A stretch of DNA of 64,000 bases. It comes from Panopea generosa. Taxonomy: Eukaryota; Mollusca; Bivalvia; Adapedonta; Hiatellidae. A model generated the notes under the pieces. That model had not been told where the DNA came from, did no database searches, and was given only the letters and a program-made list of their open reading frames with translations. Below, in pieces: positions 22,751 to 51,160 of this stretch. Numbering within the stretch: the first letter of the stretch is position 1; each line of letters starts with the position of its first letter. Made by a program: the position numbers and the translations under genes. The stretch is taken from assembly GCA_029582155.1 (NCBI GenBank), contig CM055908.1, forward strand, positions 20,251,406-20,315,405. The letters run 5' to 3'.

Positions 22751-22759
22751 TGTGTGATT

Positions 22760-24225: not shown

Positions 24226-24232
24226 AAAACAC

Positions 24233-26851: not shown

Positions 26852-26852
26852 A

Positions 26853-27492: not shown

Positions 27493-27550
27493 CCCCCCCC
27501 CCCCCCCCCCCCCCCCCCTTTCTGCCCTTTTTTTTTTTTTTTTTTTTTTT
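27493..27550. repeat. Poly-C (26) and poly-T (23) tracts
   Basis: An unbroken run of 26 C at 27493-27518, nine bases, then 23 T at 27528-27550. The minus strand G run can form quadruplexes; true lengths are likely uncertain in assembly. Confidence 0.95.
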
Positions 27551-27614
27551 AATTTTTGTTTTGTATTAAATTGAATACTCTGCCCAATTTTAATTTTGTA
27601 ACCGGCCAAAAGAC

Positions 27615-28990
27615 CCTCACCGACCCAGACACTTGCTACGAATGATCAACATAACATGACGACATGTTGCGAGTAAAACGGTCAAGGTCACAATTTGAGT
27701 TTGTTTGACAACACTTTGAGTTTGAGTGAGATTTCATTAACTTTGTCATGCATAGATCCCGTACCTCAAAGGTCAAGGTCACAATTTGAGTTTGTTTGAC
27801 AACACTGAGTCTGTGAGATTTCCTGTCTGACCTGTAACTTTGTCATGCACAGATGGATTTTATAAATACTTGCTACAAATGATCAACATAAAATGACGAC
27901 GTGTCGTAAGACCCATACCCATACCTCAAAGGTCAAGGTCACACGTTGAGTTTGTTAGACAACATTTTCAGTCTGTTTGAGATTTCGTGTCTGGCCTGTA
28001 AAAGTGCAAAAAAGGATTTTGTTAATACTAGCTACAAATGATCAACATAGCCTGATGATGTGTTGCATGTTACACCCAGAAAGGTCAAGATCACAATTTT
28101 GACTTTGTTTAATGACACTTTCAGTCTGATTGTGATTTCGAGTTTAAAAAGTGGGGCGCCCCAAGGCGCTTCCATGGATATAATATCAAGACATTGTATA
28201 GCGCTAGCATGCAGTGATAAGTAAGAGCATCCTGGGGCCCTACTGTGGAGGAAAGTGATAGATGGATTTCAAAATCATTCGGCTCAATTGATTAACATGA
28301 CAGGATGGTGTGCTGCCTGTAAGACCCAGACCCATATCTTAAAGATCACATTTTAAGCTTCCCTGGACGAAGTCCAAGGAGAGCTATTGCCATGACCCTG
28401 CCGGCATCATCAGCGTTGTCTTTAGACACCCAGGTTAAAGTTTTGCGCTTAAGTTTAAGATATCTATGTAACCATTCATTGGATGTGAATGAAACTTGCA
28501 TGTGTGTTCACCATCATCAATGGAACACACAGAGATAAGAACCATAACTCTGGATTGCATTTTTGCACAGTTATGGCCCTTTTTGGACTTAGACACCTAG
28601 CGGCAAACTTTGTTGTCTTCAGAAAACTCTTGTAAGTTTGTTTGACAACCCTTCCGAATCTGTTTGAGATTTCGTGTCCAATCTGTAACTTTGTCATACA
28701 TGGATGGATTTCAAAAACACTTTGCTCAAACTATCAAGCTAACATGATGATGTATTGCCCCTAAGACCAAGAATTGTATCTCAAAGGCTAAGGTCACACT
28801 TCAGTCTTTTTGAGATAATGAGTTTGGTCTGCTACTTACATTGAGGGATTGTAAAATAACTTGACACAAGTGATCAACATGTCATGATGCGTTGGTGCAA
28901 TAATCAGATCTATACATCAGGTGTCAAGTTCAATTTCACACAAAGGTCAAGGTCAATTCCTTTCTTTAATACATGTTATTTTCAAAGACC
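27615..28990. repeat. Tandem family with AAGGTCA, 150-160 bp units
   Basis: Diverged tandem copies share ACAAATGATCAACATAAC, GACGTGT, AAGACCCAGACCCATACCTC, TCAAAGGTCAAGGTCACA and ATTTCGTGTCTGGCCTGTAA. Key words recur near 27682, 27773, 27933 and 28084. A different block (about 28360-28630, starting AGCTTCCCTGGACGAAGTCC) is embedded in it. The same family recurs at 51170-52160. Confidence 0.8.
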
Positions 28991-29317
28991 ACTTGCCGGG
29001 TGAGGGCATGTGACAAGTTTACAATTTTTGGGCATTACAATATTAGAAAAAGTATTTAATATAATACATGATAATTCTTTCACATTAGCTTTAATGGTCA
29101 TGTGTCACACAATATTGACATTGTACTTGTTTTTATTTTCAGGACAGATTTTGCCCCCACAAGTCTTTTGGTTGCCATCATGCTTCTGATGAATGCTTAA
29201 GGTAGGAATGTCTTCCACTTTTTTTTCTTGAATTTGGGAAAATATTCACTAATAACGACAGGAAAAATGGTGGCTTCAGCTGTTTAGTTGTTAAATTTCC
29301 CTGTAGTTTATGAAGGG

Positions 29318-29987: not shown

Positions 29988-32900
29988 AAGAGTGTTGTTT
30001 TTTATATTGAAATGTGTGAATTGTTGGTGAAAGTGTTATTTTATATTTGGGACTGTGTGTTATGTTGTTAGGTGTTGTTTTGTATTAGGGATTATGTGCA
30101 TTGTATGTTGAAGAGTTGTTTTGCATTTGGGAACATGTACATTGTTGGTGAGAGTTGTTTTGCATTTGTGAATATGTACATTGTTGGTGAGAGTTGTTTT
30201 GAATTTGGGAATATGTGTATTGTTGGTGAAAGTGTTGATTTGTATTTAGGACTATGTGTATTGTTGTTGAGAGTGTTATTTTATGTTTGGAATATGTGTA
30301 TTGTTGGTGAGTGTTGTTTGTATTTTGGAATATGTGCATTATTGGTGAAAATGTTGTTTTGTATTTTGGAATTTGTGCATTGTTGGAGGGTGTTGTTTTG
30401 TTTTTGGATATATGTGTATTGTTGGTGAGAGTGTTGCTTTGTATTTGGAAATATATGCATTGCTGGTGAGTGTTGTTTTGTATTTGGAAATAAATGCATT
30501 GTTGATGACTGTTGTTTTGTATTTATGAATGTGTATTGTTGATGAAAAGGTTGTTTTGTATTTGGGAATATGTACATTGTTAGTGAGAGTGTTGTTTTGT
30601 ATTTGGAAATATATGCATTGTCGGTGAGTGTTGTTTTTTATTTAGGAATGTGTATTGTTGGTGAGAGTGTTGTTTTATATTTTGAAATATATACATTGTT
30701 GGTGAGTGTTGCTTTTTATTTGGAAATATATGCATTGCTGGTAAGAGTTGTTTTGTATCTGTGAATATGTGCATTGATGGTATGTGTTGTTTTGTATTTA
30801 CGAATGTGTATTGTTGGTGAGTGTTGTTTTGTATTACAGACTATGTGCATTGTTAGTGAGAGTGTTGTTTTGTATTTGGAACTATGTGCATTGTTGGTGA
30901 GAGTGTTGTTTTGTATTTTGAGCTATGTGCATTGTTGATGAGTGTTGTTTTGTATTTTGGAATATGTGTATTGTTGGTAAGTGTTGTTTTGTATTTGGGA
31001 ATACGGAGATTGTTGGTGAGAGTGTTGTTTTGTATTTGCGACTATGTACATTGTTGGTGAGTGTTTTGTATTTGTGAATATGTGCATTGTTGGTGAGTGT
31101 TTTGTATTTTGGAATATGTGTATTGTTGGTGAGAGTGTTGTTTTGTATTTGGGACTATGTGCATAGTTGGTGAGTGTTTTGTATTTGTGAATATGTGCAT
31201 TGTTGATGAGTGTTTTGTATTTTGGAATATGTGTATTGTTGGTGAGAGTTGTTTTGTATTTGGGAATATGTACATTGCTGGTGAGTGTTTTGTATTTGGA
31301 ACTATGTGCATTGTTGGTGAGGGTGTTGTTGTGTATTTTGAACAATGTGCATTGTTGGTGAGTGTTGTTTTGTATTTTGGAATATGTGTATTGTTGGTAA
31401 GTGTTGTTTTGTATTTGGGAATACGGAGATTGTTGGTGAGAGTGTTGTTTTGTATTTGCGACTATGTGCATTGTTGGTGAGTGTTTTGTATTTGTGAATA
31501 TGTGCATTGTGGTGAGTTTTTTGTATTTTGAAATATGTGTATTGTTGGTGAGAGTGTTGTTTTGTATTTGGAACTATGTGCATTGTTGGTGAGGGTGTTG
31601 TTGTGTATTTTGAACAATGTGCATTGTTGGTGAGTGTTGTTTTGTATTTTGGAATATGTGTATTGTTGGTAAGTGTTGTTTTGTATTTGGGAATACGGAG
31701 ATTGTTGGTGAGAGTGTTGTTTTGTATTTGCGACTATGTGCATTGTTGGTGAGTGTTTTGTATTTGTGAATATGTGCATTGTGGTGAGTTTTTTGTATTT
31801 TGAAATATGTGTATTGTTGGTGAGTGTTTTGTTTTGTATTTTGTAATGTTTGCATTGTTGGTGAGAGTGTTGCTTTGATTTTGGAAATATATGCATTGAT
31901 GGTGAGTGTTGTTTTGTATTTGTGAATATGTGCATTGTAAGTGAGTGTTTTTTTGTATTTACGAATGTTTATTGTTGTTGGGTGTTTTGTATTTGTGAAT
32001 ATGTGCATTGTTGGTGAGTGTTGTTTTGTATTTGGAATATGTGTACTGTTGGTGAGTGTTGTTTTGTATTTTTGGACTATGTGAATTGTTGGTGAGAGTG
32101 TTGTTTTGTATTTTGGAATATGTGTATTGCTGGTGATAGTGTTGTTTTGTATTTTGGAATACATGTATGTGTATTGTTGGTGAGAGTGTAGTTTTGTATT
32201 TGGGACTATGTGCATTGTTGGTGAGTGTTTTGTATTTGTGAATATGAGCACAATTGGTGAGTGGTGTTTTGTATTTAGAATATGTGCATTGTTGGTGAGA
32301 ATGTTGTTATGTATTTGGGAATATCAACATTGTTGGTGAGTGTTGTTTTGTTTTTAGAAATATGTGTATTGTTGTTCAGAATTGATTTGTATTTGGGAAT
32401 ATGTACATTGTTGATGAGAGTATTGTTTTGTATTTTGGAATATGTGTATTGTTGGTGAAAATGATGTTTTCTGTTTGGGAATATGGACATTGTTGGTGAG
32501 AGTGTTGTTTTGTATTTGGGACTACGTGTATTGTTGGGAAGTGTCATTTTGTATTTGGGAATATGTGTATTGTTGGTGAGAGTGTTGTTTTGTTTTTGGG
32601 CATATGTTTGTTGTTGGTGAGAGTGATGTTTTGTATTTGAGATGTGTGTTGTTGGTGAGTGTTGCTTTGTATTTGGGTACATATGTATTGTTAGTGAGTG
32701 TTGTTTTGTTTTTGGGAACATGTGTTTTATTGGTGAAAGTGTTGCTTTATATTCGGGAATGTGTGTATTTTTGGTGAGATATGTGTTGTTGGTGAGAGTG
32801 TTGTTTTGTATTTGGGGATAATAATGTGTATTGTTGGTGAGAATGTTGCTTTGTATTTGGGACTTTGCGTATTGTTTGTGAGTGTTGTTTTGTATTTTGG

Positions 32901-33118
32901 AATATGTGTATTGTTGGTGAGAGTGTTGATTTGTATTTTGGAATATGTGTATTGTTGGTGAGATAGTTACTTTTTATTAGGAAATATATGCATAGTTGGA
33001 GAGTGTTGTTTTGTATTTAGGAATATGTGTACTGTTGGTGAGTGTTATTTTGCAAATGGGAATATGTGCATTGTTGGTGAGTGTTGTTTTGTATATGGGA
33101 ATATGTTCATTGTTGGCG
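29988..33118. repeat. Megasatellite unit 1: 41-bp minisatellite array
   Basis: About 75 copies of a 39-43 bp unit, consensus GTGTTGTTTTGTATTTGGGA, then ATATGTGTATTGTTGGTGAG. Larger internal blocks of several monomers are repeated too (30905-31090, 31350-31510 and 31640-31795 share the ATACGGAGATTGTTGG variant). The plus strand is almost free of C. Open frames of up to 225 codons with repeating NNTHIPKYK appear on the minus strand only because the unit has few stops. Confidence 0.95.
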
Positions 33119-34010
33119 AGCAAACAGTTTTACAAGGTTGTACATTATACAAATTACTCTTGATCAACCCAGCTGTACAAGGATGTACATTATTCAAATC
33201 ACTCTTGGTAAACCAGTTGTATAAGGATGTACATTATGCCAATCACTCTTTGTAAACTAGTTGTACAAGAATGAATGGTGAAGAAAAGGCTGAATATTTT
33301 GTGTTGAGCTAAATATATGTGATGTTGGTGAGAGTGTTTATTATTTTGTGTTGAAAAAAATGTGTGGTGTTTGGGAAATGTTTGTTTTTTTTGTGTTGAA
33401 AATAATATGTGTGATTTTGGTGGAGAATGTTTGTACGTTTTGCAAATCGCTCTTGATAAGTCAGCTGTACAAGAATGTACATCATACAAATCACACCTGA
33501 TGCTGTACAATGATGAACATTATACAAATCACTCTTGATCAACAGGAAGAAATGACTGAAAACCTTTTGTATTGTTGAGATTGTGTTTTATGTTTAGAGA
33601 CAAATTTATATGTTTGGAAGTGTTTTACTTTGTGTTGGGTATGATGTATATATATTTTTTAGAGGCTTCAGTGTTTTGTATTTAGAGAGATATGTGATTG
33701 TGATGTCTGGGAGAGTGTTTGTTGTTTTCTTATTAGAGAGATATATGTGATATCTTGGAGAGTGTTTGTTATTTTGTGTTTAGAGAGATATATGTGATGT
33801 CTGGGATAGTGTTTGTTGTTTTGTATTTAGAGAGATATTTGTGATGAGATATATATGTGATGTCTGGGAGAGTGTCTGTTGTTTTATGTTGGATGAAATT
33901 ACTGTGATGTTGGGGAAAATGTTGGATAATTTTGTGTTGAGCAAATGATGTGATGTTGGGGAGAGTGTTGATTTTTGTTTGGAGAAAGATATTGTGATGT
34001 GTATCTTCCT
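33119..34010. repeat. Unit 1 spacer: GTACA-rich and GT-rich repeats
   Basis: First, degenerate copies of GATCAACCCAGCTGTACAAG, then GATGTACATTATACAAATCAC (about 41-44 bp). Then a GT-rich part with GTGTTTGTTGTTTTGTATTT, then AGAGAGATATATGTGATGTC, GGGAGA, about 46 bp. The second monomer resembles the 41-bp unit of the neighbouring array and is probably an old relative. Confidence 0.85.
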
Positions 34011-35587
34011 TTGAACACTTCCATCCTGATGGTTATCTCAAAACAGACGACATGATGTATCATAACTGGAACAATTTCCACACTGGTGGTCATCATACAG
34101 CATACGGGATGGTGTGTCATCTCTGAAACACATTCCACATTGGTGATAATCTCAAAACAGATGACATGATGTATCATAACTGGAACAATTTCCACACTGG
34201 TTGTCATCAAACAGCAAACAAAGATTGATGTTGGTGATTAGTTGTTGCAGTAGCCAGTAGTGCAGCGATGAGGTATCTTGACAGGATTGGATTATTACAT
34301 CAGTGAACATAGAGGTCACATAGTGGACAATATTATGTATTATCTCAGGAGCACTTTCAACTTTGGTGGTCGTCATACCACAGACATGATTCCACACTAG
34401 TGGTCATCATACAGCAGAAGGCATGGTGTATCGTCGCTTGAACAATATCCACACTGGTTGTCATCAAACAGTAGACAGCATGATGTCTCGGATCTCTTGA
34501 ACACATTCCAAGCTGAATGTCATCACACAGTAGAGGACATGATGTTTCACCTGAGGCACACTCGCTTCACTGATGTATATGATGTGATATTGTAATACTG
34601 GGGATGGAGAAATGACATTATTTACTACATAAATGTGATGTGTAACTACAACAAAAGGATAGACAAATTGACACTCTCTATCACAGAAATATCCCACGCG
34701 ACTACACCATTGGAATAGGAAGAATGTCACCGACTACTTCTGAACCATAATGTGGAATTACAGCACTGATTTAGAAGGATTGTTGCACTGTGCACTAGAA
34801 GTATGATTTGAAAGCTCAACATTTGGACAGAAACATCGCCATTTTCTGACACAGAAATATGATGCGAAACTACAACACTTGGGCAGCAAATTGATCAAAC
34901 TGTAACACAGAAGTAAGGGAGACAGTAGCAATTGGCCCATTGCTTAATGTTTCATATAAATACTCTTGTGTTAAAGATTGATTAACTTATTGTCCATGTG
35001 TTGCAGTCTCGCATCATATTTCCATGCTAGAGAGAGGCAATATTACTATCCTTGTGTTGAGCTTCCAAATTATACTTCTAGTGCACAGTGCGACAATCCT
35101 TTTGTATTAGTGCTTTAGTTTCATATTATGGTTCTGAGGCAGTGAGTAACGATCTTTTTGTTCCAATGGTGTAGTCTCCTAGCATACTTCTGTGATAGAA
35201 AGTGTCAATTTGTCTAACCTTTTGTTGTAGTCACCTATCATGCTTCTGTGGTCGATAATGGTATTTCTTCAGCCCTACTGCTACAATATCACATTATAAA
35301 CATCAGTGAAGCTAGTTTGCATCAGATGAAACACCATATCCTCTGCTGTGTGATGACAATCAGTATGTAATGTTGTTTTTCGCTGATAATTTTCATCTGA
35401 CGGGTTCCACCTTTCTTTCCGAGTCCCTGGCCCCATTTATGGACGCAAGGATTGATGTTGGCGAATCGTTGTTGCAGTAGCCAGTAGTGCAGCGATGAGG
35501 GAACTTGACAGGATTGGATTATTACATCAGTGAACATGGAGGTCACACAGTGGACAACAAGATGTATTATCTCTGGAGAAAGTTCCA
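34011..35587. repeat. Unit 1: 57-bp repeats and large imperfect palindrome
   Basis: First, diverged copies of a unit of about 57 bp (TTTCCACACTGGTGGTCATC, ATACAGCAGACATGATGTAT, CATCTCTGGAACA). Then an inverted repeat: the left arm about 34490-34940 and right arm about 34990-35370 share, in opposite orientation, TCTAGTGCACAGTGC, TTCCAATGGTGTAGTC and AAGTGTCAATTTGTCTA. The end (35450-35575) is a direct, slightly changed copy of 34225-34350. Minus-strand frames here (YVTSMFTDVIIQSCQ etc.) are by-products. Confidence 0.85.
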
Positions 35588-38500
35588 TTGTTGGTGAGAA
35601 TGTTGTTTTGTATTTGGGAATATGAAATATGTGTATTGCGATTCAGAATTGTTTTATATTTGGGAATATGTACATTGTTGATGAGAGTGTTGTTTTGTAT
35701 TTTGGAATATGTGTATTGTTGGTGAGAGTGATGTTTTGTATTTGGGAATATGGACATTCAATGTTGGTGAGAGTTTTGTTTTGTATAAATTGGGACTATG
35801 TGTATTTTTGGTAAGTGTTGCTTTGTATTTGGGAATATGTGTATTGCTGTTGAGTGTTGCTTTGTATTTGGGAATATGTGTATTATTGGTGATATATGTG
35901 TGTTGTTGGTGAGTGTTAGTTTGTATTTGGGACTATGTGTATTGTTTGTGAGTGTTGTTTTGTATTTTGGAATTTGTGTATTGTTGGTGAGAGTGTCGAT
36001 TCGTATTTTGGAATGTGTACTGTTGGTGAGATTGTTGCTTTGTATTTGGAAATGAATGCCTTGTTGGCGAGTGTTTTTTTTTGTATTTGGGAATATGTGT
36101 ACTGTTGGTGATATATGTGTGTTGTTGGTGAGTGTTGGTTTGTATTTGGGACTATGTGTTTTGTTTGTGAGTGTTGTTTTGTATTTTGGAACATGTGTAT
36201 TGTTGGTGAGAGTGTTGATTTGTATTTGGGCATATGTGTATTGTTGATGAGAGTGTTGATTTGTATTTGGGAATTTGTGTGTTGTTGGTGAGTGTTGCTT
36301 TGTATTTGGGTATATGTATATTGCTGGTGAGAGTGTTTTGTTTTTGGGAACATGTGTATTATTGGTGAGAGTGTTGCTTTGTATTTGGGAATATGTGTAT
36401 TGTTGGTGATATACGGTGTTGTTGGTGAGTGTTGGTTTGTATTTGGGACTATGTGTATTGTTTGTGAGTTTTGTTTTGTATTTTACAATATGTGTATTGT
36501 TGGTGAGAGTGTCGATTTGTATTTTGGAATGTGTATTGTTGGTGAGATTGTTGCTTTGTATTTGGAAATGAATGCCTTGTTGGCGAGTTTTTTTTTGTAT
36601 TTGGGAATATGTGTACTGTTGGTGAGTGTTTTTTTGCAATTGGGAACATGTGCATTGTTGATGAGAATGTTGCTTTGTATTTGGGAATATGTTCATTGTT
36701 GGTGATCAAACAGTTGTACAAGGTTGTACATTATACAAATCACTATTGATCAACCCAGCTGTACAATGATGTAAATTGTACAAAACCATTCTTGATCAAC
36801 CCAGCTGTAAAAACATGTACATTATTCAAATCACTCTTGGTAAACCAGTTGTATAAGGATGTACATTATGCCAATCACTCTTGGTAAACCAGTTGTACAA
36901 GAAAGTATTGTGAATAAAAGGTTGAATATTTTGTGTTGAGCTAAATTTATGTGATATTGGTGAGAGTGTTTGTTATTTTGTGTTGTAAAAAAATGTGTGA
37001 TGTTTTGGAAATGTTTGGGGGGTTTTTGTGTTAAGAATAATATGTGTGATTTCGGGGAGAATTTTTGTACGTTTTGCAAATCATTCTTGATCAGTCAGCT
37101 GTACAATAATGTACATCTTACTAATCACACCTGATGCTGTACAATGATGAACATTATACAAATCACTCTTGATCAACAGGAAGAAATGACTGGAAACCTT
37201 TTGTATTGTTGAGAGTGTGTTTTATGTTTAGAGACATATTTATATGTTTGAAAGTGTTTTACTTTATGTTGGGAATGATGTATACATTTTTTTTGGGAGG
37301 CTTCAGTGTTTTATATTTAGAGATATATATGATTGTGATGTCAGGGAGTCTCGGAGTGTTTGTTGTTTTCTATTTATAGAGATATATGTGATGTGATGTC
37401 TGGGATAGTGTTTGTTGTTTTATATTTAGAGAGATATTTGTGATGAGATATATATGTGATGTCTGGGAGAGTGTCTGTTGTTTTATGTTGGGAGAAATTA
37501 CTGTGATGTTGGGGAAAATGTTGGATAATTTTGTGTTGAGCAAATGATGTGATGTTGGGGAGAGTGTTGATTTTTGTTTGGAGAAAGATATTGTGATTTG
37601 TATCATAACTGGAACACTTCCATCCTGATGATTATCTCAAAACAGACGACATGATGTATCATAACTGGAACAATTTCCACACTGGTGGTCATCAAACAGC
37701 AAACAAGGATTGATGTTGGTGATTCGGTGTTGCGTTAGCCAGTAGTGCAGCGATGAGGTATCTTGACAGGATTGGATTATTACATCAGTGAACATGGAGG
37801 TCACATAGTGGACAATTTTATATATTATCCCAGGAGCACTTTCATCTTTGGTGGTCGTCATACCACAGACATGATTCCACACAAGTGGTCATCATACAGC
37901 AGAAGGCATGGTGTATCCTCTCTGGAACAATATCCACACTGGTTGTCATCAAACAGTAGACAGTATGATGTCTCGATCTCTTGAACACATTCCAAGCTGA
38001 ATGTCATCACACAGTAGAGGACATGATGTTTCACCTGAGGCACACTCGCTTCACTGATGTATATGATGTGATATTATAATACTGGGGATGGAGAAATGAC
38101 ATTATTTACTACATAAATGTGATGTGTAACTACAACAAAAGGATAGACAAATTGACACTCTCTATCAGAGAAATATCCCACGCGACTACACTATTGGAAT
38201 AGGAAGAATGTCACCGACTGCTTCTGAACCATAATTTGGCACTACAGCACTGATACAGAAGGATTGTTGCACTGTGCACTAGAAGTATGATTTGAAAGCT
38301 CAACATTTGGACAGAAATATTGCCATTTTCTGACACAGAAATATGATGCGAGACTACAACACTTGGGCAGCAAATTGATCAAACTGTAACACAGAAGTAA
38401 GGGAGACAGTAGCAATTGGCCCATTGCTTAATGTTTCATATAAATACTCTTGTGTTAAAGATTGATTAACTTATTGTCCATGTGTTGCAGTCTTGCATCA

Positions 38501-39069
38501 TATTTCCATGCTAGAGAGAGGCAATATTACTATCCTTGTGTTGAGCTTCCAAATTATACTTCTAGTGCACAGTGCGACAATCCTTTTGTATTAGTGCTTT
38601 AGTTTCATATTATGGTTCTGAGGCAGTGAGTAACGATCTTTTTGTTCCAATGGTGTAGTCTCCTAGCATACTTCTGTGATAGAAAGTGTCAATTTGTCTA
38701 ACCTTTTGTTGTAGTCACCTATCATGCTTCTGTGGTCGATAATGGTATTTCTTCAGCCCTACTGCTACAATATCACATTATAAACATCAGTGAAGCTAGT
38801 TTGCATCAGATGAAACACCATATCCTCTGCTGTGTGATGACAATCAGTATGTAATGTTGTTTTTCGCTGATAATTTTCATCTGACGGGTTCCACCTTTCT
38901 TTCCGAGTCCCTGGCCCCATTTATGGACGCAAGGATTGATGTTGGCGAATCGTTGTTGCAGTAGCCAGTAGTGCAGCGATGAGGGAACTTGACAGGATTG
39001 GATTATTACATCAGTGAACATGGAGGTCACACAGTGGACAACAAGATGTATTATCTCTGGAGAACGTTC
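35588..39069. repeat. Megasatellite unit 2 (3.48 kb)
   Basis: Same order as unit 1: 41-bp array (35588-36706), GTACA/GT-rich spacer (36707-37610), 57-bp repeats and palindrome (37611-39069). The final part is essentially identical to unit 1 across 35160-35575 versus 38640-39060. The D block is shorter here (one 57-bp monomer group missing). Confidence 0.93.
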
Positions 39070-41618
39070 CATTGTTGGTGAGAATGTTGTTTTGTATTTG
39101 GGAATATGGACATTCAATGTTGGTGAGAGTTTTGTTTTGTATAAATTGGGACTATGTGTATTTTTGGTAAGTGTTGTTTTGTATTTGGGAATATGTGTAT
39201 TGTTGGTGAGTGTTGCTTTGTATTTGGGAATATGTGTATTGCTGTTGTGTGTTGTTTTGTATTAAGGAATATGTGTATTGATGGTGAGAGTTGTTTTGTA
39301 TTTAGGCATATGTGTATTATTGGTAAGAGTGTTGATTTGTATTTGGGACTATGTTTGTTGTTGATGAGTGTTGCTTTGTATTTGGGTATATGTGTATTGT
39401 TGGTGAGAGTGTTTTGTTTTTGGGAACATGTGTATTATTGGTGAGAGTGTTGCTTTGTATTTGGGAATATGTGTATTGTTGGTGATATATGTGTATTGTT
39501 GGTGAGTGTTGGTTTGTATTTGGGACTATTTGTATTGTTTGTGAGTGTTGTTTTGTATTTTGGAATATGTGTATTGTTGGTGAGAGTGTTGATTCGTATT
39601 TTGAAATGTGTATTGTTGGTGAGATTGTTGCTTTGTATTTGGAAATGTATGCATTGTTGGCGAGTGTTTTTTTTGTATTTGGGAATATGTATACTGTTGG
39701 TGTGTGTTATTTTGCAATTGGGAACATGTGCATTGTTGATGAGAATGTTGCTTTGTATTTGGGAATATGTTCATTGTTGGTGATCAAACAGTTGTACAAG
39801 GTTGTACATTATACAAATCACTATTGATCAACCCAGCTGTAGTGTTTGTTGTTTTATATTAAGGGAGATATTTGTGATGAGATATATATGTGATGTCTGG
39901 AAGAGTGTCTGTTGTTTTATGTTGGGAGAAACTACTGCGATGTTGGGGAAAATGTTGGATAATTTTGTGTTGAGCAAATGATGTGATGTTGGGGAGAGTG
40001 TTGATTTTTGTTTGGAGAAAGATATTGTGATGTGTATCGTCCCTTGAACACTTCCATCCTGATGATTATCTCAAAACAGACGACATGATGTATCATAACT
40101 GGAATAATTTCCACACTGGTGGTCATCATACAGCATACGGGATAATGTGTCATCTCTGAAACACATTCCACATTGGTAATAATCTCAAAACAGATGACAT
40201 GATGTATCATCTCTGGAACAATTTCCACACTGGTTGTCATCAAACAGCAAACAAGGATTGATGTTGGTGATTCGTTGTTGCGTTAGCCAGTAGTGCAGCG
40301 ATGAGGTATCTTGACAGGATTGGATTATTACATCAGTGAACATGGAGGTCACATAGTGGACAATATTATGCATTATCTCAGGAGCACTTTCAACTTTGGT
40401 GGTCGTCATACCACAGACATGATTCCACACAAGTGGTCATCATACAGCAGAAGGCATGGTGTATCCTCGCTGGAACAGTATCCACACTGGTTGTCATCAA
40501 ACAGCAGACAGCATGATGTCTCGGATCTCTTGAACACATTCCAAGCTGAATGTCATCACACAGTAGAGGACATGATGTTTCACCTGAGGCACACTCGCTT
40601 CACTGATGTATATGATGTGATATTGTAATACTGGGGATGGAGAAATGACATTATTTACTACATAAATGTGATGTGTAACTACAACAAAAGGATAGACAAA
40701 TTGACACTCTCTATCAGAGAAATATCCCACGCGACTACACCATTGGAATAGGAAGAATGTCACCGACTGCTTCTGAACCATAATTTGGCACTACAGCACT
40801 GATACAGAAGGATTGTTGCACTGTGCACTAGAAGTATGATTAGAAAGCTCAACATTTGGACAGAAACATTGCTATTTTCTGACACAGAAATATGATGCGA
40901 GACTACAACACTTGGGCAGCAAATTGATCAAACTGTAACACAGAAGTAAGGGAGACAGTAGCAATTGGCCCATTGCTTAATGTTTCATATAAATACTCTT
41001 GTGTTAAAGATTGATTAACTTATTGTCCATGTGTTGCAGTCTCGCATCATATTTCCATGCTAGAGAGAGGCAATATTACTATCCTTGTGTTGAGCTTCCA
41101 AATTATACTTCTAGTGCACAGTGCGACAATCCTTTTGTATTAGTGCTTTAGTTTCATATTATGGTTCTGAGGCAGTGAGTAACGATCTTTTTGTTCCAAT
41201 GGTGTAGTCTCCTAGCATACTTCTGTGATAGAAAGTGTCAATTTGTCTAACCTTTTGTTGTAGTCACCTATCATGCTTCTGTGGTCGATAATGGTATTTC
41301 TTCAGCCCTACTGCTACAATATCACATTATAAACATCAGTGAAGCTAGTTTGCATCAGATGAAACACCATATCCTCTGCTGTGTGATGACAATCAGTATG
41401 TAATGTTGTTTTTTGCTGATAATTATCATCTGACGGGTTCCACCTTTCTTTCCGAGTCCCTGGCCCCATTTATGGACGCAAGGATTGATGTTGGCGAATC
41501 GTTGTTGCAGTAGCCAGTAGTGCAGCGATGAGGGAACTTGACAGGATTGGATTATTACATCAGTGAACATGGAGGTCACACAGTGGACAACAAGATGTAT
41601 TATCTCTGGAGAACGTTC
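39070..41618. repeat. Megasatellite unit 3 (2.55 kb, internal deletion)
   Basis: A short 41-bp array (39070-39783), then only the start of the spacer: at about 39841 CAACCCAGCTGT joins directly to AGTGTTTGTTG, removing roughly 0.65 kb present in units 2, 4 and 5. The 57-bp repeats and palindrome follow (40031-41618). Confidence 0.93.
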
Positions 41619-44600
41619 CATTGTTGGTGAGAATGTTGTTTTGTATTTGGGAATATGAAATATGTGTATTGCGATTCAGAATTGTTTTATATTTGGGAAT
41701 ATGTACATTGTTGGTGAGAGTGTGTTTTGTATTTTGGAATATGTGTATTGTTGGTGAGAGTGATGTTTTGTATTTGGGAATATGGACATTCAATGTTGGT
41801 GAGAGTTTTGTTTTGTATAAATTGGGACTATGTGTATTTTTGGTAAGTGTTGTTTTGTATTTGGGAATATGTGTATTGTTGGTGAGAGTGTTGCTTTGTA
41901 TTTGGGAATATGTGTATTGCTGTTGAGTGTTGTTTTGTATTTAGGAATATGTGTATTGATGGTGAGAGTTGTTTTGTATTTGGGCATATGTGTGTATTGT
42001 TGGTGAGAGTGTTGATTTGTATTTGTGTATATGTGTATTGTTGGTGAGAATGTTTTGTTTTGGGGAACATGTGTATTATTAGTGAGAGTGTTGCTTTGTA
42101 TTTGGGAATATGTGTATTATTGGTGATATATGTGTGTTGTTGGTGAGAGTGTTGATTTGTATTTGGGCATATGTGTATTGTTGATGAGAGTGTTTTGTTT
42201 TTTGGAACATGTGTATTATTGGTGATAGTGTTGCTTTGTATTTGGGAATATGTGTATTATTGGTGATATATGTGTGTTGTTGGTGAGTGTTGGTTTGTAT
42301 TTGGGACTATGTGTTTTGTTTGTGAGTGTTGTTTTGTATTTTGGAACATGTGTATTGTTGGTGAGAGTGTTGATTTGTATTTGGGTATATGTGTATTGTT
42401 GGTGAGAGTGTTTTGTTTTTGGGAACATGTGTATTATTGGTGAGAGTGTTGCTTTGTATTTGGGAATATGTGTATTATTGGTGATATATGTGTGTTGTTG
42501 GTGAGTGTTGGTTTGTATTTGCGACTATGTGTTTTGTTTGTGAGTGTTGTTTTGTATTTTGGAACATGTGTATTGTTGGTTTGAGTGTTGATTTGTATTT
42601 GGGCATATGTGTATTGTTGATGAGAGTGTTGATTTGTATTTGGGACTATGTGTGTTGTTGGTGAGTGTTGCTTTGTATTTGGGTATATGTGTATTGCTGG
42701 TGAGAGTGTTTTGTTTTTGGGAACATGTGTATTTTTGGTGAGAGTGTTGCTTTGTATTTGGGAATATGTGTATTGTTGGTGATATGTGTGTGTTGTTGGT
42801 GAGTGTTGGTTTGTATTTGGGACTATGTGTATTGTTTGTGAGTGTTGTTTTGTATTTTGGAATATGTGTATTGTTGGTGAGAGTGTCGATTCGTATTTTG
42901 GAATGTGTATTGTTGGTGAGATTGTTGCTTTGTATTTGGAAATGAATGCCTTGTTGGCGAGGGTTTTTTTTTGTATTTGGGAATGTGTGTACTGTTGGTG
43001 AGTGTTATTTTGCAATTGGGAACATGTGCATTGTTGATGAGAATGTTGCTTTGTGTTTGGGAATATGTTCATTGTTGGTGATCAAACAGTTGTACAAGGT
43101 TGTACATTATACAAATCACTATTGATCAACCCAGCTGTACAATGATGTAAATTGTACAAACCATTCTTGATCAACCCAGCTGTACAAACATGTACATTAT
43201 TCAATTCACTCTTGGTAAACCAGTTGTATAAGGATGTACATTATGCCAATCACTCTTGGTAAACCAGTTGTACAAGAAAGTATTGTGAATAAAAGGTTGA
43301 ATATTTTGTGTTGAGCTAAATATATGTGATGTTGGTGAGAGTGTTTGTTATTTTGTGTTGTAAAAAAATGTGTGATGTTTTGGAAATGTTTGTTTTTTTT
43401 GTGTTAAGAATAATGTGTGATTTCGGGGATAATTTTTGTACGTTTTGCAAATCATTCTTGATCAGTCAGCTGTACAATAATGTACATCTTACTAATCACA
43501 CCTGATGCTGTACAATGATGAACATAATACAAATCACTCTTGATCAACAGGAAGAAATGACTGGAAACCTTTTGTATTGTTGAGAGTGTGTTTTATGTTT
43601 AGAGACATATTTATATGTTTGAAAGTGTTTTACTTTATGTTGGGAATGATGTATACATTTTTTAGGGCAGGCTTCAGTGTTTTATATTTAGAGATATATA
43701 TGATTGTGATGTCAGGGAGTCTCGGAGTGTTTGTTGTTTTCTATTTATAGAGATATATGTGATGTGATGTCTGGGATAGTGTTTGTTGTTTTATATTTAG
43801 AGAGATATTTGTGATGAGAATTATATATGTGATGTCTGGGAGAGTGTCTATTGTTTTATGTTGGGAGAAATTACTGTGATGTTGGGGAAAATGTTGGATA
43901 ATTTTGTGTTGAGCAAATGATGTAATGTTGGGGAGAGTGTTGATTTTTGTTTGGAGAAAGATATTGTGATTTGTATCGTCCCTTGAACACTTCCATCCTG
44001 ATGATTATCTCAAAACAGATGACATGATGTATCATAACTGGAACAATTTCCACACTGGTGGTCATCAAACAGCAAACAAGGATTGATGTTGGTGATTCGG
44101 TGTTGCAGTAGCCAGTAGTGCAGCGATGAGGTATCTTGACAGGATTGGATTATTACATCAGTGAACATGGAAGTCACATAGTGGACAATATTATATATTA
44201 TCCCAGGAGCACTTTCATCTTTGGTGGTCGTCATACCACAGACATGATTCCACACAAGTGGTCATCATACAGCAGAAGGCATGGTGTATCCTCTCTGGAA
44301 CAATATCCACACTGGTTGTCATCAAACAGTAGACAGTATGATGTCTCGATCTCTTGAACACATTCCAAGCTGAATATCATCACACAGTAGAGGACATGAT
44401 GTTTCACCTGAGGCACACTCGCTTCACTGATGTGTATGATGTGATATTGTAATACTGGGGATGGAGAAATGACATTATTTACTACATAAATGTGATGTGT
44501 AACTACAACAAAAGGATATACAAATTGACACTCTCTATCAGAGAAATATCCCATGCGACTACACCATTGGAATAGGAAGAATGTCACCGACTGCTTCTGA

Positions 44601-45444
44601 ACCATAATTTGGCACTACAGCACTGATACAGAAGGATTGTTGCACTGTGCACTAGAAGTATGATTAGAAAGCTCAACATTTGGACAGAAATATTGCCATT
44701 TTCTGACACAGAAATATGATGCGAGACTACAACACTTGGGCAGCAAATTGATCAAACTGTAACACAGAAGTAAGGGAGACAGTAGCAATTGGCCCATTGC
44801 TTAATGTTTCATATAAATACTCTGTGTTAAAGATTGATTAACTTATTGTCCATGTGTTGCAGTCTCGCATCATATTTCCATGCTAGAGAGAGGCAATATT
44901 ACTATCCTTGTGTTGAGCTTCCAAATTATACTTCTAGTGCACAGTGCGACAATCCTTTTGTATTAGTGCTTTTGTTTCATATTATGGTTCTGAGGCAGTG
45001 AGTAACAATCTTTTTGTTCCAATGGTGTAGTCTCCTAGCATACTTCTGTGATAGAAAGTGTCAATTTGTCTAACCTTTTGTTGTAGTCACCTATCATGTT
45101 TCTGTGGTCGATAGTGGTATTTCTTCAGCCCTACTGCTACAATATCACATTATAAACATCAGTGAAGCTAGTTTGCATCAGATGAAACACCATATCCTCT
45201 GCTGTGTGATGACAATCAGTATGTAATGTTGTTTTTCGCTGATAATTTTCATCTGACGGGTTCCACCTTTCTTTCCGAGTCCCTGGCCCCATTTATGGAC
45301 GCAAGGATTGATGTTGGCGATTCGTTGTTGCAGTAGCCAGTAGTGCAGCGATGAGGGAACTTGACAGGATTGGATTATTACATCAGTGAACATGGAGGTC
45401 ACACAGTGGACAACAAGATGTATTATCTCTGGAGAACGTTTCAT
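41619..45444. repeat. Megasatellite unit 4 (3.83 kb)
   Basis: The longest of the inner units because its 41-bp array is expanded (41619-43081). That array contains three near-copies of a block of several monomers with GGTGATATATGTGTGTTGTT. Spacer 43082-43970; 57-bp repeats and palindrome 43971-45444. Confidence 0.93.
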
Positions 45445-48400
45445 TGTTGGTGAGAATGTTGTTTTGTATTTGGGAATATGAAATATGTTTATTGCGATTC
45501 AGAATTGTTTTATATTTGGGAATATGAACATTGTTGATGAGAGTGTTGTTTTTTTTGTTGAATATGTGTATTGTTGGTGAGAGTGATGTTTTGTATTTGG
45601 GAATATGGACATTCAATGTTGGTGAGAGTTTTGTTTTGTATAAATTGGGACTATGTGTATTTTTGGTAAGTGTTGTTTTGTATTTGGGAATATGTGTATT
45701 GTTGGTGAGTGTTGCTTTGTATTTGGGAATATGTGTATTGCTGTTGTGTGTTGTTTTGTATTAAGGAATATGTGTATTGATGGTGAGCATTGTTTTGTAT
45801 TTAGGCATATGTGTATTGTTGGTGAGAGTGTTGATTTGTATTTGGGACTATGTGTGTTGTTGATGAGTGTTGCTTTGTATTTGGGTATATGTGTATTGTT
45901 GGTGAGAGTGTTTTGTTTTTGGGAACATGTGTATTATTGATGAGAGTGTTGCTTTGTATTTGGGAATATGTGTATTGTTGGTGATATATGTATGTTGTTG
46001 GTGAGTGTTGGTTTGTATTTGGGACTATTTGTATTGTTTGTGAGTGTTGTTTTGTATTTTGGAATATGTGTATTGTTGGTGAGAGTGTTGATTCGTATTT
46101 TGGAATGTGTATTGTTGGTGAGATTGTTGCTTTGTATTTGGAAATGTATGCATTGTTGGCGAGTGTTTTTTTTGTATTTGGGAATATGTGTACTGTTGGT
46201 CTGTGTTATTTTGCAATTGGGAACATGTGCATTGTTGATGAGAATGTTGCTTTGTATTTGGGAATATGTTCATTGTTGGTGATCAAACAGTTGTACAAGG
46301 TTGTACATTATACAAATCACTATTGATCAACCCAGCTGTACAATGATGTAAATTGTACAAACCATTTTGATCAACCGAGCTGTACAAGGATGTACATTAT
46401 TCAAATCACTCTTGGTAAACCAGTTGTATAAGGATGTACATTATGCCAATCACTCTTGGTAAACCAGTTGTAGAAGAAAGTATTGTGAATAAAAGGTTGA
46501 ATATTTTGTGTTGAGCTAAATATATGTGATGTTGGTGAGAGTGTTTGTTATTTTGTGTGATAAAAAAATGTGGGATGTTTTGGAAATGTTTGTTTTTTTT
46601 GTGTTAAGAATAATATGTGTGATTTCGGGGAGAATGTTTGTACGTTTTGCAAATCATTATTGATCAGTCAGCTGTACAATAATGTACATCTTACTAATCA
46701 CACCTGATGCTGTACAATGATGAACATTATACAAATCACTCTTGATCAACAGGAAGAAATGACTGGAAACCTATTGTATTGTTGAGAGTGTGTTTTATGT
46801 TTAGAGACATATTTATATGTTTGAAAGTGTTTTTACTTTATGTTGGGAATGATGTATACATTTTTTTGGGGAGGCTTCAGTGTTTTGTATTTAGAGATAT
46901 ATATGATTGTGATGTCAGGGAGTCTCGGGAGTGTTTGTTGTTTAGTATTTATAGAGATATATGTAATGTCTGGGATAGTGTTTGTTGTTTTGTATTAAGA
47001 GAGATATTTGTGATGAGATATATATGTGATGTCTGGAAGAGTGTCTGTTGTTTTATGTTGGGAGAAATTACTGCGATGTTGGGGAAAATGTTGGATAATT
47101 TTGTGTTGAGCAAATGATGTGATGTTGGGGAGACTGTTGATTTTTGTTTGGAGAAAGATATTGTGATGTGTATCGTCCCTTGAACACTTCCATCCTGATG
47201 ATTATCTCAAAACAGACGACATGATGTATCATAACTGGAATAATTTCCACACTGGTGGTCATCATACAGCATACGGGATAATGTGTCATCTCTGAAACAC
47301 ATTCCACATTGGTAATAATCTCAAAACAGACGACATGATGTATCATCTCTGGAACAATTTCCACACTGGTTGTCATCAAACAGCAAACAAGGATTGATGT
47401 TGGTGATTCGTTGTTGCAGTAGCCAGTAGTGCAGTGATGAGGTATCTTGACAGGATTGGATTATTACATCAGTGAACATGGAGGTCACATAGTGGACAAT
47501 TTTATGTATTATCTCAGGAGCACTTTCAACTTTGGTAGTCGTCAATCCACAGACATGATTCCACACAAGCGGTCATCATACAGCAGACAGCATGGTGTAT
47601 CCTCTCTGGAACATAATCCACACTGGTTGTCATCAAACAGCAGACAGCATGATGTCTCGATCTCTTGAACACATTCCAAGCTGAATGTCATCACACAGTA
47701 GAGGACATGATGTTTCACCTGAGGCACACTCGCTTCACTGATGTATATGATGTGATATTGTAATACTGGGGATGGAGAAATGACATTATTTACTACATAA
47801 ATGTGATGTGTAACTACAACAAAAGAAAAGACAAATTGACACTCTCTATCAGAGAAATATCCCACGCGACTACACCATTGGAATAGGAAGAATGTCACCG
47901 ACTGCTTCTGAACCATAATGTGGAACTACAGCACTGATACAGAAGGATTGTTGCACTGTGCACTAGAAGTATGATTGAAAGCTCAACATTTGGACAGAAA
48001 CATCGCCATTTTCTGACACAGAAATATGATGCGAGACTACAACACTTGGGCAGCAAATTGATCAAACTGTAACACAGAAGTAAGGGAGACAGTAGCAATT
48101 GGCCCATTGCTAAATGTTTCAGATAAATACTCTTGTGTTAAAGATTGATTAACTTATTGTCCATGTGTTGCAGTCTCGCATCATATTTCCATGCTAGAGA
48201 GAGGCAATATTACTTTCCTTGTGTTGAACTTCCAAATTATACCTCTAGTGCACAGTGCGACAATCCTTCTGTATTAGTGCTTTAGTTTCATATTATGGTT
48301 CTGAGGCAGTGAGTAACGATCTTTTTGTTCCAATGGTGTAGTCTCCTAGCATACTTCTGTGATAGAAAGTGTCAATTTGTCTAACCTTTTGTTGTAGTCG

Positions 48401-48745
48401 CCTATCATGTTTCTGTGGTCGATAATGGTATTTTTTCAGCCGTACTGCTACAATATCACATTATAAACATCAGTGAAGCTAGTTTGCATCAGATGAAACA
48501 CCATATCCTCTGCTGTGTGATGACAATCAGTATGTAATGTTGTTTTTCGCTGATAATTTTCATCTGACGGGTTCCACCTTTCTTTCCGAGTCCCTGGCCC
48601 CATTTATGGACGCAAGGATTGATGTTGGCGAATCGTTGTTGCAGTAGCCAGTAGTGCAGCGATGAGGGAACTTGACAGGATTGGATTATTACATCAGTGA
48701 ACATGGAGGTCACAGAGTGGACAACAAGATGTATTATCTCTGGAG
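45445..48745. repeat. Megasatellite unit 5 (3.30 kb)
   Basis: Array 45445-46283, spacer 46284-47165, 57-bp repeats and palindrome 47166-48745. Its end does not jump back into the 41-bp array. TTATCTCTGGAGCACTTCCC continues through CTTTGGTGGTCATCATACAG, giving the uninterrupted form of the junction used in units 1-4. Confidence 0.92.
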
Positions 48746-49835
48746 CACTTCCCACTTTGGTGGTCATCATACAGCAGACATGATTCCACACTAGTCTTCA
48801 TCATACAGTAGACGGCATGGTATATCTTCTGGAACAAATCAGTTGGGGAAAATGTTTGATAATCTTATGTTGACCTAGGTATATTTGATGTTGGCGATCA
48901 TTTGTAGTTTATTGTTGAGTAAAATATTATGTGTGGTGTTTGGGAAAATGTTTTTGTTTTTGTTTTGAGAGTAATATGTGTGATTTGGGGGAAAATATAT
49001 GTACATTTTGCAAATTACTCTTGATCAACTGGCAGTACAAGGATGTACATTATGCAAATCACTCTTTGATCAACATGTACTGTTATTACCAGTTTGTATA
49101 TTGTTGAGACAGTTCAAGGTGAGAGGATATGTTATTTTCTGTTGGAAATATATTTATTATGTTTATTTATAATGTGCAGCTTGGTTTGGAAATATATGTA
49201 TTGTGAGTAAGACAACTGCTTGAGTACTACGACAGTATAACATGACTGCAATTCTGTGAAGTATGGAACACTTTCCACACTTACGGGTTTCACTATGAGT
49301 AGTAACAATACTGTGGCTTTATATAACTGTACCAAACTGTGACCATATGACATGACTGCAATTCTGTGTTTCCACACTGGTTGTCATCAAACAGCAGACG
49401 GAATGATGTCTCGATCTCTTGAACACACTCCAACCTGAATGTCATCACAAAGTAGAGGACATTGTGTGTCACCTGAGGCGCGCTCACTTCACTGATGTAC
49501 ATAATGTGATATTGTAATGCTGGGGATGGAGAAATGGGAGAAAATTACTGTGATGTTGGGAAAAATGTTTGATAATTTTGTGTTGAGCAAATGATGTGAT
49601 GGGGAGAGTGTTTGTTGATTTTTGTTTGGAGAAAATTGTTGAGCACTTTCCGCTTTGGTGGTCTTCATACAGCAGACATGATTCCACACTAGTGGTCATC
49701 ATACAGCAGCCGGCACGTTGTATCATATAACTGGAACACATTCAACATTGGTGATAATCTCAAAACAGACCACATAATGTATCATCTCTGGAAGAATTTC
49801 CACACTGGTGGTCATCATACAGTAGACATTAACTG
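48746..49835. repeat. Degenerate megasatellite tail
   Basis: Scrambled, diverged pieces of the same blocks: 57-bp repeats (48746-48840, 49370-49500, 49640-49835), GTACA/GT-rich spacer (48841-49090) and part of the 41-bp type. This is expected at an array edge. Confidence 0.8.
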
Positions 49836-50567
49836 CAGTAGTGTGACTGATATGTCTGCAGCACTGTGACACTATACCATGCATATGCACTATGCTATGA
49901 CATCACTATGACATGGCATGACTGCAGAACTGATTGTATGACATGACTGCTGTACTGTGACTATGACATGGCTGCAGAACTGTGGCTGTAGGACTTTACT
50001 GCTGAACTGTAACTGAAGGATATAACTGCAGAACAGACTCTGACTTGACTAGAGTTTTTACTGTATCACATGACTGCAGTATTGTAACTGTATTGCATGA
50101 CTGCATAACTCTGACCATATGACGCTACTGCAGAACTGTAACAGTATGACTTAACGGTGACTGTATGTCATGACTGTATGACTGCAGAACTGTGACTATG
50201 ACTTTACTGCTGAACTGTGACTGTATGACGCAACTGCCTTACTGTGATTCTATGACTTGCCTAGAGAACTGAGACTATGACTGCAGCACTATGACTGAAA
50301 CAATGTGACTGTATGACAAGACTACAAAACTGAGACACTGTGACACTATGACGTGACTGCAGAACTTTAACTACAACATGACTAATGCTGTGACTATTAC
50401 ATGACTGTAACTTTTTCACATGACTGCAAAACTGTGACTGTAGAACTTTGACTTGATGATATGACTAATACACTGACAGTATGACTTGACTGCAGAACTT
50501 TGACTGTTGACTGCAGAACTGTGATCATATGACATGACTTACACTGTGACCGTAATTGTGACCATAA
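49836..50567. repeat. TGACTGCAGAACTGTGAC minisatellite
   Basis: Roughly 25 diverged copies of a 27-32 bp unit built from TGACTGCAGAACTGTGAC and TGTATGACA. It contains many CTGCAG sites. It is unrelated in sequence to the preceding megasatellite. Confidence 0.85.
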
Positions 50568-50569
50568 TA

Positions 50570-50816
50570 CAGTGAAAGGAAAAAGAAAGTATACATACCT
50601 ATAAATATCGACAGGTCGAGGAACTATAAATGGATTTCATATTAATTTTGTTTATTTATATTTCATCATATTGTTGAATAAAAAAACAAACATTTAATTC
50701 ATTTCAAAGCAAAACTATAAGAAAAAATCTGTTCATTTTCCATCACATGAATAAACTTAGCCAATAATGAAATAATTTTATTAAACAAAATGTATACTTT
50801 CTTTATCCTTTCAATG
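50570..50816. mobile_element. Tc1/mariner-type MITE, 247 bp, TA duplication
   Basis: Ends CAGTGAAAGGAAAAAGAAAG and, inverted, CATTGAAAGGATAAAGAAAG, each continuing TATACAT, with TA on both sides (50568-50569 and 50817-50818). The interior is AT-rich and non-coding. It splits the minisatellite array, so it arrived after the array formed. Confidence 0.88.
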
Positions 50817-51160
50817 TACATTACTGCAGACACGATAGTGTATCATCTCTGCAACACATTCCTCATTGGTGAGAATCTCAAAACAGACCACATGATGCAT
50901 CTTCTCTGAAACAATTTCCACACTGGTGGTCATCATACAGCAGACATTAACTGCAGTAATGTGACTGCAGCACTGCGACACTATGCCATGATGACAGCAC
51001 TGTGACATGGCATGACTGCAGAACTGATTGTATGACATGACTGCTGTACTGTGACTATGACATGACTGCAGAACTGTGACTGCCTTGACTAGAACTTTTA
51101 CTGTATATCTTGACATCAGTACTGTAACTGAATGGCATGACTGCAATAGTAATCGCAGCG
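50817..51160. repeat. Resumed minisatellite after the MITE
   Basis: Begins with 57-bp-type megasatellite sequence (50825-50945), then repeats about 250 bp closely related to 49845-50110 (GACATGGCATGACTGCAGAA, CTGATTGTATGACATGACTG). The junction order shows duplication of part of the array. Confidence 0.8.

What the first reader, a model, noticed from the sequence alone, without database searches (positions are those of the whole stretch)
29988..49835. 20-kb composite megasatellite with five higher-order units
Five head-to-tail units (about 5.6, 3.48, 2.55, 3.83 and 3.30 kb) share one order: 41-bp minisatellite, GTACA/GT-rich spacer, 57-bp repeats, palindrome. Marker phrases repeat at 33117, 36703, 39780, 43079, 46280 and at 35451, 38931, 41480, 45306, 48616. 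Long stretches (35160-35575 against 38640-39060) look identical, so amplification is recent or homogenised. Units differ mainly in array length, which points to unequal exchange inside the 41-bp arrays.
Basis: seen in the sequence. Interest (0 to 1): 0.8.

Follow-up and report, generated by a model that had tools for sequence, protein, structure and literature searches.

The report
Dispersed palindromic composite satellite array
A 20-kilobase stretch of animal DNA is five head-to-tail copies of a patchwork repeat built round a long imperfect palindrome; the palindrome recurs at many other places in the same genome, so this is one site of a scattered satellite family and probably has no gene-like job.

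Summary
In detail: five head-to-tail units (5600, 3484, 2549, 3823 and 3314 bp), an exact repeat of up to 570 bp, and palindrome arms of 409-413 nt in each unit (nothing comparable in 20 dinucleotide shuffles). Refinements: units 2-5 look largely like a duplicated dimer; the fifth unit ends at 48757 and scrambled partial copies run on to about 51150; the core is a 1226-bp palindromic monomer, not the 41-bp array.

The window lies in a 1.47-Gb, 39-contig assembly. The monomer recurs at 22 or more loci on 11 contigs (74 long forward matches), with periods from about 1226 to 3800 bp. At 17 of the 22 loci one further segment lies 2-20 kb downstream in the same orientation. At one locus about 100 nt of one arm match the other almost perfectly (102 of 103 pairs against 83 of 103 elsewhere), which points to arm-to-arm conversion.

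Best reading: a non-coding, dispersed composite macrosatellite, amplified locally by unequal exchange and spread inside larger blocks. RNA-pairing selection and coding are not supported. Raw reads and the block's ends could not be examined, so a giant transposon is not excluded.

The parts
29988..33120 (+). A1: mainly 39/41-bp G/T-rich minisatellite array, 3133 bp; a SINE-like repeat ends about 90 bp to its left
   Evidence: GC skew about +0.8
33117..35587 (+). U1 core: GTACA 44-bp repeats, GT-rich spacer (46/47-bp repeats related to the 41-bp unit), 57-bp repeats, palindromic monomer
34503..35373 (+). palindrome of unit 1: arms 34503-34915 and 34961-35373, 79.2% complementary, no gap
35588..36705 (+). 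A2 minisatellite array, 1118 bp
36703..39071 (+). U2 core; 1226-bp monomer 37708-38933 with palindrome 37987-38857
39072..39783 (+). A3 minisatellite array, 712 bp; 98.2% identical to A5
39780..41620 (+). U3 core (682-bp gap in the spacer part); palindrome 40536-41406
41621..43081 (+). A4 minisatellite array, 1461 bp; contains a match to all of A2 at 88.7%
43079..45443 (+). U4 core; palindrome 44360-45229
45444..46282 (+). A5 minisatellite array, 839 bp
46280..48757 (+). U5 core; palindrome 47671-48540; right junction differs from that of U1-U4
48757..49850 (+). tail: scrambled partial copy of a unit, including 166 bp (49371-49536) 91.6% identical to 47617-47782 round the start of the left arm
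49851..51150 (+). 25-27-bp repeat module, partly duplicated, with a MITE-like insertion at about 50570-50822 (seen by eye)
20935..29022 (+). left flank, collinear with gaps to duplicated blocks on other contigs (pieces 83-96% against C26:130-139 kb)

Best explanation
It is one locus of a dispersed, non-coding, composite macrosatellite family whose core is a 1226-bp monomer containing an 871-bp imperfect palindrome. Shown: five composite units here, one full palindrome each; the same monomer at 22 or more loci on 11 contigs with differing spacing; several other loci that share the same truncation points, so whole arrays were copied; exact tracts shared between units; one arm-to-arm tract. Inferred: one illegitimate join between the end of the palindromic monomer and the 41-bp array made the first composite unit, because the same array-start junction occurs in U1-U4 but not in U5. 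Unequal homologous exchange between misaligned units then multiplied it, the latest large step being duplication of a two-unit dimer, and gene conversion evened out parts. Dispersal between chromosomes happened together with flanking DNA, as large duplications or as a mobile block. It most likely serves no host function and behaves as a self-propagating repeat; that the palindrome provokes recombination is likely but unproven.
For: Five units and a dimer. Same junction in U1-U4, different in U5. Informative sites with all five units: U2+U4 7, U3+U5 6, U1+U5 4, others 5, of 22; exact tracts of 570, 512 and 370 bp. Dispersed monomer: (74 forward matches of 970 bp or more; list cut and 40 of 236 candidates scored, so a lower bound). 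Shared left truncation at monomer position 242 at 7 loci (C22 two, C26 two, C5 60.1 Mb, C16 5.1 Mb, C11), shared right truncation at about position 450 at 7 loci and at 568 at 4 others. Stretches of about 30 kb round C5, C16, C22 and C26 arrays at about 96-99.7% in their longest pieces. Downstream segment in the same orientation at 17 of 22 palindrome loci. Arm tract. Window and C15 21.14-Mb palindromes in one clade, support 100/98. Coding not supported.
Against: The ends of the dispersed block were not found, so segmental duplication and a giant transposon are not separated. The arms of units 1-3 hold no gap at 84-86 differences, fewer indels than the ratios between units suggest (15 indel events to 103 variable sites in the spacer, 2 to 32 in the arms), which could mean constraint. 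The palindrome half of the core varies less between units (2.4-4.8% of sites) than the spacer (12.0%), which could be constraint as well as conversion. 9 of 22 informative sites do not fit a simple dimer. No reads, expression or chromatin data.
Confidence: 0.63

Rival explanations
1. The array is an internal part of a very large non-autonomous transposon (tens of kb) that carries tandem repeats and palindromes, in the manner of foldback or Helentron-type elements but much larger.
For: A 2-kb downstream segment lies in the same orientation 2-20 kb from the palindromes at 17 of 22 loci, and 12 further loci carry that segment without a listed palindrome; many contigs, identities 86-100%; shared truncation points.
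Against: Extents seem to differ: C26:120001-123000 is listed full length at only three other places and the downstream segment at 29 loci, though both lists are lower bounds (40 of more than 13,000 candidates scored). At C16 the left flank is mostly 82-88% like C26 while palindromes and right block are mostly 95-98%. The window lacks the downstream segment; it is not listed at the other three C15 loci or at C13 32.24 Mb. No ends, TIRs or target-site duplications were found, but the ends were not reached. No intact transposase was recognised in the stretches scanned.
Confidence: 0.25
2. The palindromes are transcribed into long hairpin RNAs cut into siRNAs (an hpRNA-type locus).
For: 871-nt hairpins with arms in register, predicted -485 to -495 kcal/mol on the plus strand, in tandem; G-U mismatches exceed A-C mismatches in every unit (33:24, 32:21, 31:21, 29:19, 32:23), though the units are not independent and the excess is small.
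Against: Changes between units and classes do not favour pairing: of 31 arm changes 13 turn a Watson-Crick pair into a mismatch, 8 into G-U, 4 restore one; on the D lineage 11, 4 and 3 of 20. No Rfam family at gathering threshold.
Confidence: 0.05
3. The unit number is partly an assembly artefact: two haplotypes of the dimer placed one after the other.
For: The dimers A2-U2-A3-U3 and A4-U4-A5-U5 differ by 2.4-8.2% in their two main alignments, part of which is within reach of allelic divergence in some molluscs (recalled).
Against: Junctions fall inside the repeat with no duplicated flank in the window; U1 shares exact tracts with U2 and U3; a separate locus on the same contig (21.14 Mb) has the same kind of multi-unit array.
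Confidence: 0.06
4. The repeats encode a repetitive protein.
For: Open minus-strand frames up to 315 codons in the arrays.
Against: Monomer lengths mix mainly 39 and 41 bp, so the frame shifts; overlapping frames are open at once; none of the 10 frames scanned passes a Pfam cut-off.
Confidence: 0.01

Closest known systems
Macrosatellites such as DXZ4 and D4Z4 (features recalled; PMC3491370 and PMC12963445 seen only as titles and abstract starts in listings)
   Same: Kilobase tandem units, partly homogenised.
   Different: Only five units; patchwork of several minisatellites round a long palindrome; many dispersed loci; no gene or CTCF feature tested.
Tetris foldback element and its TIR-220 satellite, Drosophila virilis (PMC4079207, abstract and one results section read)
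   Same: Long inverted repeats and internal tandem repeats, with satellite arrays arising from them.
   Different: Here the inverted repeat sits inside each satellite monomer with a 45-52-nt centre; no terminal position or target-site duplication was found.
Cg_HINE Helentrons carrying satellite-like arrays, Pacific oyster (PMC7492417, abstract and one results section read)
   Same: Dispersed arrays with shared flanking sequence.
   Different: No subTIR, microsatellite or short end palindrome recognised at the window array's left edge (by eye); arms are about 413 nt and units kb-sized.
Clam satellites with short palindromes at array junctions, e.g. phBglII400 (PMC5139131, passages read)
   Same: Palindromes within satellite monomers; abrupt junctions.
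   Different: Palindromes there are 10-12 bp; here 871 bp, and the shared truncation points (monomer positions about 242, 450 and 568) are not at its centre (about 715).
Composite satellites from degraded transposons (PMC12628747, passages read)
   Same: Composite make-up.
   Different: No transposon origin of the modules was shown here.
Mammalian sex-chromosome palindromes with gene conversion (PMC8981503, title and abstract start in a listing)
   Same: Arm-to-arm conversion.
   Different: Those keep more than 99% arm identity; here a tract is seen at one locus and arms are about 80% alike.

Membership tests
Macrosatellite / composite higher-order satellite | kilobase units in head-to-tail order | tested here: met
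Macrosatellite / composite higher-order satellite | homogenisation among units | tested here: met
   exact tracts to 570 bp and conflicting informative sites; window and C15 21.14-Mb copies in one clade
Macrosatellite / composite higher-order satellite | polymorphic copy number among individuals | not testable with these tools
   no reads or second genome of the species
Helentron (HINE) element | subTIRs, 5' microsatellite and short 3' palindrome at fixed ends | tested here: inconclusive
   block ends not located; nothing of the kind seen by eye at the left edge of the window's array
Foldback transposon | long inverted repeats at element ends with 8-10-bp target-site duplications | tested here: inconclusive
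   the palindrome is flanked by 149-231-bp direct repeats (87-89%) that are parts of successive 1226-bp monomers; short duplications were not searched for separately and block ends were not reached
hpRNA locus | pairing maintained by compensatory or G-U changes | tested here: not met
   a small G-U excess between arms is the only hint the other way
hpRNA locus | small RNAs from the stem | not testable with these tools
   no small-RNA data

The most novel reading that the evidence does not exclude
The palindromic satellite is itself the exchange point through which whole chromosome blocks are re-joined. At the window the array separates a left flank shared with other chromosomes from a right flank that mostly is not, and at C16 it separates an older left flank (mostly 82-88% to C26) from a younger palindrome-plus-right block (mostly 95-98%), while at another locus one arm has been copied from the other. 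Long palindromes in a satellite would thus drive both array growth and interchromosomal block shuffling.
Probability: 0.15. Interest if true: 0.65.

Novelty: new variant of a known kind. Interest (0 to 1): 0.42.

Why it matters
Palindromes in satellite monomers have been proposed to help satellites spread (PMC5139131 and PMC12628747, passages), but the clam examples there are 10-12 bp or shorter. Here the arms are about 413 nt, copies occur at many loci with different spacing, and one locus shows a tract copied from arm to arm. That gives a natural series for asking whether palindromes cause satellite amplification and block dispersal. If they do not, it is a well-resolved case of ordinary composite satellite evolution in a large animal genome.

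Tried and rejected
Rejected: RNA-hairpin selection (the small G-U excess is told above). Coding in the arrays. One common ancestor for all short motifs: only the 41/47/46-bp, the 44/38-bp and the two 57-bp consensuses hold together (p 0.005 each, the lowest possible); links between groups were weak (p 0.015-0.03) and a control motif scored p 0.01 against the 41-bp unit, so they were not used (110 comparisons). Rfam at gathering threshold: none. A 26-base palindrome-centre pattern in genome contigs and viral contigs: none. A working gene carried by the block: the exon-like pair at 26655-27490 is split by a SINE-like insertion here and broken differently in the C26 copy. Rows dropped: 8 of the 39 full palindromes found (three C22b, two C26a, one C5, two C26b, all D class) were left out of the 31-row alignment; partial palindromes were not aligned; one of 413 pairs was dropped for a gap. 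Six-frame scan covered 6 of the 18 stretches then held.

Full report
Observation. The five units are real in the given sequence. Self-BLAST, tandem-repeat analysis and phrase searches place them at 29988, 35588, 39072, 41621 and 45444, ending at 48757. Each has a mainly 39/41-bp G/T-rich array (3133, 1118, 712, 1461 and 839 bp), then a core (about 2472, 2370, 1842, 2366 and 2478 bp) with GTACA 44-bp repeats, a GT-rich spacer (missing in most of unit 3), 57-bp repeats and a palindrome. No self-match at E 1e-5 appears in 20 dinucleotide shuffles. The spacer's 46/47-bp repeats are related to the 41-bp unit, the 41-bp to the 47-bp and that to the 46-bp consensus. G/T strand bias reaches a GC skew of about +0.8.

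Unit history. Cores are 95.5-98.4% identical. U2 and U4 share a 114-bp gap and A3 matches A5 at 98.2%, while the other nine array pairs reach 77-89% in their best alignments. The simplest history is duplication of a dimer A2-U2-A3-U3. But 9 of 22 informative sites with all five units support neither U2+U4 nor U3+U5, and U1 shares exact tracts of 570 bp with U2 and 512 bp with U3, so exchange or conversion also took place. The array-start junction is the same in U1-U4 and different in U5, which suggests one founding join (inference). Variable sites fall from 12.0% in the GTACA-spacer part, through 8.2% in the 57-bp part, 4.8% in the left arm and 2.9% in the right arm, to 2.4% after the palindrome. 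Conversion and constraint are both possible causes; alignment error in the tandem spacer may add to the gradient.

The palindrome. Arms of 409-413 nt are 78.9-80.0% complementary with 45-52 nt between them. Units 1-3 have no gap between arms over 413 nt, unit 4 none over the 409 nt aligned, unit 5 has one. The direct repeats that flank each palindrome lie 1225-1227 bp apart and are 87-89% alike over 149-231 bp: they are the same part of successive 1226-bp monomers.

The family. The window is C15:20251406-20315405 of a 1,474,161,289-base assembly in 39 contigs. A monomer query (window 37708-38933) gave 281 matches, of which only part were listed (40 of 236 first candidates scored, so all counts are lower bounds). 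I count 74 forward matches of 970 bp or more at 22 loci on C2, C5, C11, C12, C13, C15, C16, C17, C18, C22 and C26; four loci (C2, C5 68.99 Mb, C13 8.13 Mb, C15 22.69 Mb) show a single such match. The matches at 77-80% on the opposite strand are the other arm and were not counted. Spacing of successive monomers differs by locus (start coordinates): about 1226 bp at C5 (two loci), C11, C13 0.22 Mb, C16 5.1 Mb, C18, C22 and C26; 1576-1638 and 2046-2454 at two further C16 loci; 2247 and about 3506 at C13 32.24 Mb; about 2700 at C15 19.06 Mb; about 2990 at C12; about 3300 at C15 21.14 Mb; 2548-3825 in the window. In a script table of 13 locus groups (C22b and C26b not included) the monomer is complete in all 13 at 90.6-96.7%, while other modules vary in presence and identity. 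These loci were chosen by the monomer, so its presence in all is by construction, and many of the stretches are only 3-9 kb.

Larger blocks. Six 30-kb stretches round arrays on C5, C16, C22 (two) and C26 (two) match one another in long pieces, the longest at about 96-99.7%; C26a and C22b match almost without break over 30 kb. At C16 the left flank is mostly 82-88% like C26 (one 219-bp piece 92%), while the palindromes and the right block are mostly 95-98% (one 444-bp piece 91%). The window's left flank 20,935-29,022 is collinear, with gaps, with C26:130-139 kb (pieces 83-96%). Of its right flank, 51.2-54.9 kb is 4-21% covered by the fetched loci at 73-83% and 55.0-59.7 kb not at all; a 205-bp piece at 63796-64000 matches at 85%. 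C26:120001-123000 is listed full length, at 97%, at C5 68.19 Mb, C22 2.24 Mb and C26 0.296 Mb, so there the shared block is probably about 40 kb or longer, though not all of it was aligned. C26:155001-157000 is listed as about 32 long copies at 29 loci: 17 of the 22 palindrome loci, each time downstream in the same orientation at about 2-20 kb, and 12 loci without a listed palindrome. It is not in the window and is not listed at the other three C15 loci or C13 32.24 Mb. Because 40 of more than 13,000 candidates were scored, these absences are not proven. Six-frame scans of six stretches and of L019 and L030 show no large intact gene; the longest frame, 278 codons in L030, is itself a tandem repeat and was not tested. 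A C17orf113-like zinc finger (Pfam E 1e-15) is in the C5 copy and, by eye, a broken relative in the C26 copy.

Arm-to-arm tract. In 31 aligned palindromes of the 39 found, the class consensuses of the window, C15 21.14 Mb and the remaining (D) loci have 331, 324 and 329 Watson-Crick pairs of 413, and C13 32.24 Mb has 350. The surplus lies in one tract: 102 of 103 pairs against 83 of 103 in the others, 19 pairs gained and none lost, 20 right-arm differences against 6 left-arm; outside it, over 309 pairs, 17 gained and 15 lost (Fisher p 0.00026). The tract was chosen after seeing the data, so the p-value is a guide. Direction cannot be fixed: the tract may have formed in the C13 lineage or been lost from the ancestor of the others.

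Function. Arm changes between units and between classes do not favour pairing; G-U mismatches slightly exceed A-C mismatches between arms (33:24 in unit 1, similar in the others). No Rfam family reaches its threshold, arrays do not keep a frame, and none of the 10 frames scanned passes a Pfam cut-off. I therefore take it as a non-coding repeat without shown function. The surroundings are animal: SMC3-like exons on the minus strand (PDB match E 7.9e-9; Pfam SMC_N down to E 5.7e-7 but below its cut-off) up to a possible start codon at 16862, and Tc1- and Mutator-type transposase fragments to the right. A mollusc is my guess from recalled features; no call shows it.

What is known. Related work that I looked at: foldback-derived satellites (PMC4079207, abstract and one section), Helentron-borne arrays in oyster (PMC7492417, abstract and one section), clam satellite junctions at 10-12-bp palindromes (PMC5139131, passages), composite monomers from degraded transposons (PMC12628747, passages). 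In seven literature searches I saw, among the titles and abstract starts listed, none that describes a kb-scale palindromic composite satellite of this build; most full texts were not read and only open-licence papers are held.

Verdict. A confirmed, unusual but not categorically new repeat: a new variant of composite macrosatellite, dispersed, with very long palindromes and one arm-to-arm tract. On checking, the absence of the downstream segment at some loci proved weaker than first written (capped lists), so I moved the giant-transposon rival from 0.22 to 0.25 and the best explanation from 0.66 to 0.63.

Noticed in passing
59771-60835: Separate 39-bp array of about 24 copies, G/T strand again, with several open frames; variability by codon position was not significant (p 0.087), so coding is not shown.
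   Followed up: partly
1-16862 (-): SMC3-like exons on the minus strand; a possible first exon is followed by a splice-donor-like GT.
   Followed up: partly
26655-27490: Exon-like pair split by a tRNA-SINE-like insertion (about 26856-27115, by eye); the C26 copy lacks the insertion but is broken otherwise.
   Followed up: partly
50570-50822: MITE-like insertion with inverted ends of roughly 24 nt inside the tail module, seen by eye.
   Followed up: no
22755-23181 and 29490-29897: Dispersed SINE-like repeat, 78% alike, the second copy ending about 90 bp left of the array.
   Followed up: no
52606-52917 (-) and 56920-57267 (-): Fragments of DDE_3 (E 2.6e-10) and Mutator-like (E 2.6e-11) transposases.
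   Followed up: no
C13:173133-203373 of the same genome: The downstream block segment occurs there in four copies spaced 9417 bp.
   Followed up: no
53788-54908: 156-bp tandem repeat of 6.4 copies (53788-54787) and related 121-bp repeats right of the array.
   Followed up: no
7620-8069: 75-bp tandem repeat, 6 copies, 97% matches, among SMC3-like exons.
   Followed up: no
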